64,000 nucleotides of DNA. Source: Rubrobacter indicoceani. GTDB taxonomy: Bacteria; Actinomycetota; Rubrobacteria; Rubrobacterales; Rubrobacteraceae. A model generated the notes under the pieces. It saw only the letters and a list, made by a program, of their open reading frames with translations. It was not told the origin of the DNA and did no database searches. The stretch lies in NCBI RefSeq assembly GCF_003568865.1, contig NZ_CP031115.1, positions 2,790,001 through 2,854,000 on the forward strand, written 5' to 3'. The position numbers were made by a program, and so were the translations under genes. Positions 28,086-30,117 of the stretch are shown in pieces. Position 1 is the first letter of the stretch. The number at the start of each line of letters is the position of its first letter.

Positions 28086-28454
28086 CTAGCCGAAAACCCA
28101 GATAAGGCTGCACGGCGCGCCGAGCAGAAACGAGAGCGTAAACGTAACGCCGAAGAAGACGTTGCCATCGGACTCGTAAGTGTAGAGGCAATGATAGTGG
28201 AGCATCAAGAGTATGGAAGTGAGCGAGATACCGCTCATCAGAACGGCGGTTACGCGCAGGGCGTTGTTTATGCCTATCTGCCGCAGAACTCCTTCGGAGT
28301 TGATCAGCAAAAGCCCGAACCAGTCAGCCGTGAGGAACACGAAAAGGCCGAATACCCCCTGGAGCACCAGCAGGAGCGGGCGCGGATAGAGGGGCCCGAC
28401 TCCAAAGATGCGGTGCATGAAACCGACCGTCTGAGGCCTCGTTCGTCTCTTCAT
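28086..28454 (-). CDS. small membrane protein, unknown
   Basis: 122 residues, not recognised. Three to four hydrophobic helices (about 27-50, 63-84, 100-120). The conserved-looking segment GPLYPRPLLLVLQGVFGLFV follows a basic N terminus. Convergent with the deaminase gene, 10 bases apart. Coding is supported by the membrane-like pattern and codon use. Confidence 0.6.
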   Translation of the reverse strand: MKRRTRPQTVGFMHRIFGVGPLYPRPLLLVLQGVFGLFVFLTADWFGLLLINSEGVLRQIGINNALRVTAVLMSGISLTSILLMLHYHCLYTYESDGNVFFGVTFTLSFLLGAPCSLIWVFG

Positions 28455-28541
28455 GTCCGCATGATTCTAGTACACGCGACGGTGCCGCTGGCGGAGGAAA
28501 GGCTGCACCTCTCACCCGCCGGGGCCTTCTATACATCTCTC

Positions 28542-29582
28542 TCAGCGCAGAAATCGAAAGGCGAGAAACCCGCCCCCGACCAGGACCGCCCCTCCGAAGA
28601 GACCCGCGAGCGCAACGCCGCCCGTACTCGGCAGGACGTTGCTGACGAACTCCCCAACGGAGGCTACAACCCCCCGGGGCTGACCGCCGCTCGACGGCTC
28701 CGGCTCTTCTACGGCTTCGGTGCCGGCCCCTTCTCCACTCGCGGTCGCCGTGGTCTCTTCCTCGTAGGCCGGGATGGTCGCTTCGGCCTCCCCGATAACT
28801 GCTCCGGTGGCCTCGTTCGACGCGTCTTCATCGCCGTACTGAGCCCCAGCCGCAGCCGTGCCCTCTCCGGGTGCCGTTGATTCTCCCCCCTGAGCCCCGG
28901 CCTCACCCTCGACAGTAGCCGGAGCGTCGCCGGACGCGGCTTCTCCCTGCGCTCCGGTCTCCAAGGAGGTGTCCGGGGTCTCTTCCGAGGGCTGAACCGT
29001 CGAGGCGACGCCCGGCGGCTGGCCGAGACCGGCGACGGCGGCCCCGGTCTCGGTCCGGTCGAGCCGTCCATCACCGTTTGCGTCCCAGACCGCAAAGCTT
29101 CCGGCAAGGTTGCCATCGTAGGCAAGAGCCTGACACACATCCACCTCGCCGTAACCCCGGTTGCCCCAGTCCACGAAAGGCCGCTCGGCCGGTATCCCGT
29201 ACCGGACCACAAGAGCCTCACACTTCCCGAGGGTCAGGGGGGACTGATCCGGATCGCTCACGGGCCCGATCACGGAATCCAGATAAGCTCGCTGCTCACC
29301 TGACTGCAAAGCCCCGTCGGCGTTTATGTCGTTCGCGGCGAAGTACCCCGGGAGATCCCCGTCGTAAGCCATGTTCAGGCATATGTCGTAGCCGGAGTAA
29401 CCCCGGTTCTGACCGACGGGACGCTCCGCCGGAACCCCGTTCTCCTGCACGAAAGCCTCGCACTCGGCCAGCGTCGGTTCGATAGTGGACGGCCCCTCCT
29501 GAGCAACCGCAGCGGCCGGAAACAGAACCGCCGCAACGATCGCCAAAGCTACGATACGCCCGATGTCGGTGAAACCGCTCAT
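28542..29582 (-). CDS. sortase-anchored EF-hand surface protein
   Basis: 346 residues from the ATG at 29582, with GAGAGG upstream. Order: signal peptide (about 7-28, ending AVAQE); two similar segments of about 65-75 residues, each with a CEAxVxxxGxPAERP motif, a paired Cys, and an EF-hand loop (DINADGALQSGE, 85-96; DANGDGRLDRTE, 167-178); a low-complexity Glu/Ala/Thr/Gly spacer; and a wall-sorting signal LPSTGG followed by a hydrophobic stretch and RFLR. It is expected to be covalently attached to the cell wall and to bind calcium. No sortase gene is in the window. Function unknown. Confidence 0.85.
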   Translation of the reverse strand: MSGFTDIGRIVALAIVAAVLFPAAAVAQEGPSTIEPTLAECEAFVQENGVPAERPVGQNRGYSGYDICLNMAYDGDLPGYFAANDINADGALQSGEQRAYLDSVIGPVSDPDQSPLTLGKCEALVVRYGIPAERPFVDWGNRGYGEVDVCQALAYDGNLAGSFAVWDANGDGRLDRTETGAAVAGLGQPPGVASTVQPSEETPDTSLETGAQGEAASGDAPATVEGEAGAQGGESTAPGEGTAAAGAQYGDEDASNEATGAVIGEAEATIPAYEEETTATASGEGAGTEAVEEPEPSSGGQPRGVVASVGEFVSNVLPSTGGVALAGLFGGAVLVGGGFLAFRFLR

Positions 29583-29825
29583 CACTCCATCCTCTCTCAT
29601 CCATACTCCGTGACCGATCAAAGCCAGCCAAATTCTTCTGTTTGCGTATTTATATTAAGTTTTATTTACAACATACAGGTTACAGACAGAAAAATCTCGG
29701 ATAACGAGAACAAGCTGAAGCGGAAAGTTCCGGGGTGTGTGATCCGGGACACGAGTTATAAGCGCTTGAGGTCACGTCCCGGCGTGCATTGTCGCGTATT
29801 GCAGGACAAACGCTCCAGCAGGCGA

Positions 29826-29841
29826 TGTGATTTAGATCAAA
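29826..29841 (+). promoter_or_regulatory. FNR/CRP-like palindrome
   Basis: TGTGATTTAGATCAAA matches the FNR pattern TTGAT-N4-ATCAA in nine of ten positions, and also resembles a CRP site (TGTGA-N6-TCACA). A TACAAT -10-like box follows at 29848-29853, just before the ATG at 29860. Confidence 0.45.
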
Positions 29842-29859
29842 CTAAGGTACAATGATGCA

Positions 29860-30117
29860 ATGACCATCTACCGTTACAATCGGCAGTTCTTCGAGGAGGG
29901 CGAGTACGCTCGCAGAAAAGACGCGATCCCCGGCAACGGGGTTGACCCGGTGGTCAAGATCGTCGAGGACCTCGGCACGATCGAGATCCCGTGCGGCAAG
30001 GTGGATTGTCGTACGAATTGCATCGAGTACACCGTGCGGGCCGCGAAGCTGCGCGAGCAGCAAGAAGATTATTCGCTGGCGGAGTGCAAGCTCTCTCCGC
30101 TTGTCAGCATCATCTAG
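29860..30117 (+). CDS. small Cys-containing protein, unknown
   Basis: 85 residues, no family recognised. Four Cys at 45, 50, 54 and 76 (PCGKVDCRTNC and AEC) could hold a metal, a cluster or disulfides. The rest is mixed charged, with no signal peptide. Three ATG codons cluster before the start, and only 29860 is in frame. The -10 box lies so close that the message may be nearly leaderless. An FNR/CRP-like site upstream hints at redox or oxygen control. Confidence 0.65.
   Translation: MTIYRYNRQFFEEGEYARRKDAIPGNGVDPVVKIVEDLGTIEIPCGKVDCRTNCIEYTVRAAKLREQQEDYSLAECKLSPLVSII

What the first reader, a model, noticed from the sequence alone, without database searches (positions are those of the whole stretch)
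28542..29582. Cell-wall-anchored protein with duplicated EF-hand module
Two modules with a CEAxVxxxGxPAERP motif, paired Cys and an EF-hand are followed by a low-complexity spacer and LPSTG anchor. I do not recognise the module as a named domain. It could be a calcium-dependent adhesion or matrix protein.
Basis: partly seen in the sequence, partly recalled or inferred. Interest (0 to 1): 0.5.

Follow-up and report, generated by a model that had tools for sequence, protein, structure and literature searches.

The report
Wall-anchored protein with two calcium-binding modules
A small surface protein of a Rubrobacter-type bacterium appears to carry two calcium-binding modules on a flexible stalk fixed to the cell wall; the calcium-binding motif is of a familiar type, but the whole module was found in only three genomes and its job is untested.

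Summary
Window 28542-29582 (-) encodes 346 aa: signal peptide, two ~72-residue modules (four Cys, two canonical EF-hand loops), acidic low-complexity spacer, C-terminal LPSTG sorting signal. The repeat is real (local score 152; maximum 56 in 2000 shuffles). Selection keeps the modules (dN/dS 0.18 in the closest pair) but not the spacer (1.0).

No Pfam or NCBIfam model reaches its cut-off, but the module probably is not a new fold. AlphaFold2 of one module (pLDDT 87) gives four helices; the 50 listed VIA-align rows are EF-hand proteins aligned across the module, though Z (at most 5.4) is weak. I read it as an EF-hand pair: a pseudo-hand with a conserved, apparently metal-free loop (GxPxxRP...NRGY), probably disulfide-stapled, then a canonical hand. 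It is not Excalibur.

Full-length orthologues turned up only in two Rubrobacter MAGs, beside the same 85-aa gene; a same-genus genome has an empty site. The genome has 12 sortase genes, so wall linkage is likely. Best reading: calcium-stabilised surface display of a binding loop (inferred). New variant of a known kind; modest interest.

The parts
28542..29582 (-). Gene for the wall-anchored protein, 346 aa (P0001)
29499..29582 (-). Signal peptide, residues 1-28 (cleavage site by eye, after AVAQ or just before)
   Evidence: hydrophobic 17-residue windows starting at residues 3-14; orthologues
29265..29480 (-). Module 1, residues 35-106
29397..29438 (-). Pseudo-hand loop of module 1, GVPAERPVGQNRGY (residues 49-62), between Cys41 and Cys68
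   Evidence: invariant columns; helices on both sides
29295..29330 (-). Canonical EF-hand loop of module 1, DINADGALQSGE (residues 85-96)
29025..29243 (-). Module 2, residues 114-186
29151..29198 (-). Pseudo-hand loop of module 2, GIPAERPFVDWGNRGY (residues 129-144), between Cys121 and Cys150
   Evidence: invariant columns; helices on both sides
29049..29084 (-). Canonical EF-hand loop of module 2, DANGDGRLDRTE (residues 167-178)
   Evidence: sub-threshold EF-hand matches
28668..29015 (-). Low-complexity acidic spacer (residues 190-305), rich in A, G, E, T, S, P, V; little constraint between orthologues
28545..28634 (-). Sorting signal: LPSTG (317-321), hydrophobic segment, tail ending in Arg

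Best explanation
A secreted protein that a sortase links to the peptidoglycan. Its outer part carries two tandem calcium-binding modules, held away from the wall by a disordered, acidic stalk of about 120 residues. Each module is most likely one EF-hand pair: the first hand has lost its calcium ligands, keeps a conserved Pro/Arg/Asn/Tyr loop, and is stapled by a disulfide between its two helices; the second hand is canonical and binds one Ca2+. External Ca2+ (two ions per protein expected) would fold or rigidify the modules and present the pseudo-hand loop to an extracellular partner (a neighbouring cell, a matrix polymer or another wall protein). Shown by computation: the module repeat, EF loops, Cys pattern, purifying selection, sorting signal, sortase genes in the genome. 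Predicted only: the fold. Inferred: the disulfide, Ca2+ binding, the Ca2+-driven change and the partner-binding role of the loop.
For: Repeat and loops far above chance. Six module copies in three genomes keep 23 invariant columns; from the first to the second Cys these are C, G, P, R, P, N, R, G, Y and C. In the closest pair of relatives (L004-L005) dN/dS over the modules is 0.099/0.554 = 0.18 and over the spacer 0.366/0.366 = 1.0. AF2 model of a single module: pLDDT 87.1, pTM 0.75, helices 4-14, 30-39, 43-50, 60-71. VIA-align of it: the 50 rows listed are EF-hand proteins (most by title, a few such as 7eeb_I and 2bl0_C by recall), aligned from residue 1 to 68-72, best Z 5.4 with 2.6 A over 50 residues; the two-module model agrees (best Z 5.8, 3.0 A over 54 residues). 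Profile-to-PDB matches are chiefly to EF-hand proteins and chiefly at the second half of the module (2m7n, E 3.2e-6 for the whole sequence). The genome has 12 sortase genes, all over the family cut-off; 10 of the 12 were read and all 10 have [ST]LQ[TS]C. The anchor resembles LPDTGG anchors elsewhere in the genome.
Against: Structural matches are weak: Foldseek gives no hit at E <= 0.001 for either model (best 0.041, 0.95), and of the 50 rows shown, 12 are by title unrelated proteins (histones, AAA protease and others) and four an engineered calcium-binding Z domain. VIA only re-aligns Foldseek's candidates and its Z stays under 8, which the tool itself calls common for helical models. The 2m7n profile match is a sum of weak repeats (best single stretch i-Evalue 9.2). 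Pfam EF-hand models stay below their cut-offs. P0001 does not match the Pfam sorting-signal model PF00746 at E <= 1. pLDDT falls to about 63 for residues 21-30 of the single module, the second half of the pseudo-hand loop, and the two-module model has pTM 0.49. The tool gave no coordinates and none lie in /data, so the Cys-Cys distance was not measured. Nothing in the neighbourhood names a partner.
Confidence: 0.55

Rival explanations
1. The protein is a calcium buffer or wall-charge protein: EF-hands plus an acidic stalk hold Ca2+ at the surface, with no specific partner.
For: Modules and spacer are both acidic (net charge -16 over residues 29-190 and -24 over residues 190-320, counting K, R, D, E only). 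Other wall proteins of the family carry Ca2+-type loops.
Against: A strongly conserved stretch is the apparently non-calcium loop with two Arg and a Tyr, which a mere buffer does not need. Only two canonical sites per protein.
Confidence: 0.2
2. Docking module: the EF-hand pair binds one defined protein (as dockerin binds cohesin) and fixes another secreted protein to the wall.
For: Tandem duplication of a small Ca2+-stabilised module with conserved residues resembles dockerins in general plan (recalled). The genome has other proteins with sorting signals.
Against: No cohesin-like or other partner was identified; I did not search for one genome-wide. No dockerin model is among the Pfam matches.
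Confidence: 0.2
3. The module is a divergent Excalibur domain (PF05901), a known extracellular Ca2+-binding domain with a disulfide, which is common in this family of bacteria.
For: Same general plan (two Cys, EF-type loop, wall anchoring). Excalibur matches in 20 of 39 family genomes, 18 over the cut-off; LPxTG lies in the same frame in 6 of the 20 loci examined. The 14 aligned columns at the Ca2+ loop have E 0.0056 for this one comparison.
Against: hhalign probability 6.6, alignment confined to the Ca2+ loop. In Excalibur the second Cys lies inside the Ca2+ motif (DxDxDGxxCE, PMC5137146, passages); here both Cys precede the loop. PF05901 matches neither the protein nor its modules, and nothing in the own genome at E <= 0.01.
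Confidence: 0.04
4. The helix-loop-helix half is a small domain of another origin joined to a single EF-hand; the EF-hand-pair fold is an artefact of matching helical models.
For: Weak Z and non-significant Foldseek E-values; sequence profiles match EF-hands chiefly over the second half.
Against: EF-hands usually come in pairs (recalled). The listed VIA rows align across the whole module, though they are drawn from Foldseek's own list.
Confidence: 0.3

Closest known systems
EF-hand superfamily (calmodulin-type pairs; S. coelicolor calcium-binding protein 3aka/3akb)
   Same: Canonical 12-residue Ca2+ loops of the form D-x-[ND]-x-D-G-x-L-x-x-x-E; predicted helix pattern of a hand pair
   Different: Secreted and wall-anchored; one hand of each pair lacks ligands and has a conserved GxPxxRP...NRGY loop; two Cys per module; below Pfam cut-offs
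Excalibur domain (PF05901; CbpL of pneumococcus, PMC5137146, passages)
   Same: Small extracellular Ca2+-loop domain with two conserved Cys in surface proteins; examples with LPxTG in frame in this family
   Different: Second Cys lies in the Ca2+ motif there and upstream of the loop here; about 40 against 72 residues; no profile match beyond the loop
Bap of Staphylococcus (PMC7785521, passages)
   Same: LPXTG-anchored, EF-hand motifs, Ca2+ response of a surface protein
   Different: Bap of S. aureus has 2,276 aa with a large region B and long repeats, and there Ca2+ inhibits aggregation; similarity was not tested; the Ca2+ role here is unknown
SPARC/BM-40 and testican EC domain (PMC7763218, passages)
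   Same: Extracellular EF-hand pair with a deviant hand; in testican-2 only one hand is read as Ca2+-binding; conserved disulfides within the domains
   Different: Animal matrix proteins; in SPARC both hands bind Ca2+; analogy only, no comparison run

Membership tests
EF-hand superfamily | 12-residue loop with ligands at positions 1, 3, 5, 9, 12 and Gly at 6 | tested here: met
   Two loops; 0 of 20000 shuffles give two; positions 1, 5, 12 and the Gly are invariant in six copies
EF-hand superfamily | Score over a curated EF-hand model | tested here: not met
   Best 14.6 bits against a cut-off of 25; 16 against 25.9. One search gives only E-values for the six modules (best 0.0015). I claim EF-hand motifs, not membership of a named Pfam family
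EF-hand superfamily | Paired helix-loop-helix fold | tested here: inconclusive
   Four helices predicted, EF-hand proteins fill the VIA list, but Z <= 5.4 and best Foldseek E 0.95
EF-hand superfamily | Ca2+ binding | not testable with these tools
   needs ITC or NMR
Sortase substrates (LPXTG) | Signal peptide; LPXTG, hydrophobic segment, basic tail at the C-terminus | tested here: met
   Sequence and hydropathy; kept in the window protein and both relatives
Sortase substrates (LPXTG) | Score over Pfam Gram_pos_anchor (PF00746) | tested here: not met
   No match for P0001 at E <= 1; of six other proteins scanned, three match it below its cut-off of 20 bits and three not at all at E <= 0.1
Sortase substrates (LPXTG) | Sortase genes in the genome | tested here: met
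   12 over the PF04203 cut-off
Sortase substrates (LPXTG) | Covalent link to peptidoglycan | not testable with these tools
   needs cell fractionation
Excalibur (PF05901) | Match to the Pfam model and Cys inside DxDxDGxxCE | tested here: not met
   No match; none in the own genome at E <= 0.01; profile comparison probability 6.6
Bap family | Homologous region B or C-repeats | not tested
   No Bap sequence was compared; length and plan differ
Dockerin | Match to the Pfam dockerin model | tested here: not met
   Not among the matches at E <= 10 for six modules or E <= 1 for the protein; HMMER's filters drop most matches above about 0.1

The most novel reading that the evidence does not exclude
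The module is a lineage-specific Ca2+-gated recognition domain in which one EF-hand has been turned from a metal site into a ligand-binding loop (GxPxxRP...NRGY) while the other keeps Ca2+ as a structural switch, displayed in tandem on a sortase-linked stalk.
Probability: 0.3. Interest if true: 0.55.

Novelty: new variant of a known kind. Interest (0 to 1): 0.33.

Why it matters
If right, it is a compact, testable example of an EF-hand repurposed on a bacterial surface: a small Cys-paired module with strong conservation in the hand that does not look able to bind calcium. It also belongs to a wider pattern seen here: Rubrobacteraceae genomes carry further LPxTG proteins with calcium-type loops of other kinds. 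Two searches of the held library (Rubrobacter with sortase, 7 papers; Rubrobacter with calcium-binding and cell surface, 3 papers) listed no title or abstract about such proteins in this genus; only the listings were read.

Tried and rejected
Excalibur membership: rejected. Other named domains: no Pfam or NCBIfam match over a cut-off for P0001. Sub-threshold matches of other kinds: NCBIfam XopAW (E 0.033, 14 bits against 120), matched from residue 162 to 198 around the second EF loop, and a polymerase model at E 0.86; FG-GAP_3 for 2 and FG-GAP for 1 of the six modules (best E 0.031 and 0.12). Phage or plasmid origin: no relatives found in viral contigs, plasmids or phages. Wider spread: one search found no relative in genome contigs with P0001 alone; with the module alignment only the two known MAGs were found there (exact-pattern pre-filter, so distant relatives could be missed, and records of the window's own genome may be left out); 0 of 394 and 0 of 66 genomes of two other classes (the tool notes that an empty answer without a positive control shows little). 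The fourth genome (G305, E 9.7e-4, one of 396) I treat as chance and left out of the counts: 44 positions without EF loop or Cys, in a 79-aa frame antisense to a 253-aa frame that I read, without a search, as adenylosuccinate synthetase. Thirteen further genomes matched only from residue 204 on (spacer and anchor), not the modules. A promoter scan of 28400-29950 found none, and 3 terminator-like sites where 1.4 are expected. Species name: papers on Rubrobacter (listing; passages) did not settle it. Literature searches on EF-hand plus LPXTG and on SPARC-type hands gave analogies only; two searches found no paper. In the rows shown by the fold searches I noticed no dockerin, Excalibur or SPARC chain; this excludes none of them.

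Full report
What is there. The minus-strand frame 29582-28542 encodes 346 aa: a signal peptide (residues 1-28), module 1 (35-106), a seven-residue link that is nearly the same in the two relatives, module 2 (114-186), a spacer made mainly of A, G, E, T, S, P and V (190-305), and LPSTG, a hydrophobic stretch and a tail ending in Arg (317-346). The two modules are true repeats (score 152 against at most 56 in 2000 shuffles). Two canonical EF loops are not expected by chance (0 of 20000 shuffles).

Relatives. A search of 60 whole genomes, the own one included, gave 16 with a match: full-length in the own genome and in G021 (54%) and G013 (49%), and in the 13 others only in the spacer and anchor. 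The module profile matched 4 of 396 genomes of the phylum: these three, with two copies each, and one weak match that I take for chance. The same two relatives were found in the 84,980-species collection, where they are named Rubrobacter sp. MGR_bin143 and MGR_bin253 (contig lengths equal those of G021:C99 and G013:C72). Two other classes gave 0 of 394 and 0 of 66. The window genome belongs to the same family as these MAGs; its species was not determined.

Locus. The divergent 85-aa gene (29860-30117 +) is found in 36 of 39 genomes of the family. Of the 30 loci held for it (one per genome, up to 1.5 kb of flank), 3 have the module protein beside it: the window's and the two relatives'. Four of the 30 have under 700 bases on that side, so they could not show it, and for six matching genomes no locus was held. 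In G001, of the same genus, the flanking genes are in the same order, but between the matching DNA the window has about 1.53 kb (28352 to 29886) and G001 about 0.29 kb (L102 5140 to 5435). The gene is thus an accessory of a conserved locus, with gain or loss undecided. In L030 other genes follow the wall protein, and the relative of the membrane-protein gene 28086-28454 lies about 4 kb further on.

Selection. Between the two closest relatives dN/dS is 0.18 over the modules and 1.0 over the spacer. The module alignment has no gaps; in the spacer 39 of 123 alignment columns have a gap in at least one of these two. dS to the window protein is high (1.0 or more in every region, and not computable in one), so only the close pair is quoted.

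Structure. The two-module model has pLDDT 73.9 and pTM 0.49 from a three-row alignment, the single module 87.1 and 0.75 from six rows. Each module has four helices. Foldseek gives no match at E <= 0.001; in the 50 rows shown for the single module, 12 are by title unrelated proteins and four an engineered calcium-binding Z domain, the rest EF-hand proteins. VIA-align, which only re-aligns Foldseek's own candidates, lists EF-hand proteins in its 50 rows (most by title, a few by recall), aligned from residue 1 to 68-72, Z 4.3-5.4, rmsd 2.5-3.7 A over 48-54 residues; 8 of 435 chains reach Z 5 and none Z 8. By the tool's own note such Z values may mean only a common arrangement. Together with the spacing of helices, loops and Cys this suggests an EF-hand pair: pseudo-hand plus canonical hand. 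The pseudo-hand loop, counted from Gly to Tyr, is 14 residues in module 1 and 16 in module 2, lacks the acidic pattern of a Ca2+ site and is strongly conserved. A disulfide between the two Cys that flank it is inferred from position and secretion, not measured.

Wall linkage. The genome carries 12 sortase genes over the Pfam cut-off; the 10 that were read have [ST]LQ[TS]C. An anchor profile found ten places at E <= 10, three of them rows used to build it; of the other seven, six lie in frames ending in LPxTG-type signals, three of these with E of 0.1 or more. They include proteins with DPBB, nuclease (SNase) and DUF4394 domains, and one protein (L076) with a lone EF-type loop, DLDGDGWISFYE (no Pfam match at E <= 0.1).

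Function. Excalibur, a known extracellular Ca2+ domain that folds on Ca2+ binding and has a disulfide (PMC5137146, passages read), is the nearest functional parallel and is common in this family (20 of 39 genomes), but the profiles share only the Ca2+ loop. Bap shows that EF-hands in an LPXTG protein can make surface behaviour respond to Ca2+; there Ca2+ inhibits aggregation (PMC7785521, passages read). SPARC and testican show an extracellular EF-hand pair with a deviant hand (PMC7763218, passages read). By analogy I propose Ca2+-stabilised display of a recognition loop. Docking and simple Ca2+ buffering remain open.

Verdict. The motif is a known kind (EF-hand), the anchor is a known kind (sortase signal), and the combination with a conserved pseudo-hand is a narrow variant for which these searches found no name. 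Interest is modest.

Noticed in passing
L002/L003 (G000:C1:2432060-2433308) and L013 (G001): A tandem pair of short LPDTGG proteins (one at the G001 locus) with a shared NDSFNDNSTNTQ-type head and two Cys, next to what I read as a CAP-type secreted protein and a TPR-like protein; no Pfam family over the cut-off for the one scanned.
   Followed up: partly
L076 1480-2646 (G000:C1:720592): LPDTGG protein with an acidic low-complexity head and one EF-type loop followed by a CYICVCG stretch; no Pfam match at E <= 0.1.
   Followed up: partly
L081, L082, L085, L086, L088, L092: Excalibur-type motifs in frames that also hold LPxTG in six of 20 loci from Rubrobacteraceae genomes; no Excalibur match at E <= 0.01 in the window's own genome.
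   Followed up: partly
window 29860-30117 (+): 85-aa protein with a PCGKVDCRxNC motif, found in 36 of 39 family genomes, divergent from the wall protein; no Pfam match at E <= 1.
   Followed up: partly
window 28352-29886 against L102 5140-5435: Empty site in a same-genus genome: the wall-protein gene is missing while its neighbours are kept.
   Followed up: yes
G000 (12 places): Twelve sortase genes in a 3.08-Mb genome, which seems many; the 10 read share [ST]LQ[TS]C.
   Followed up: partly
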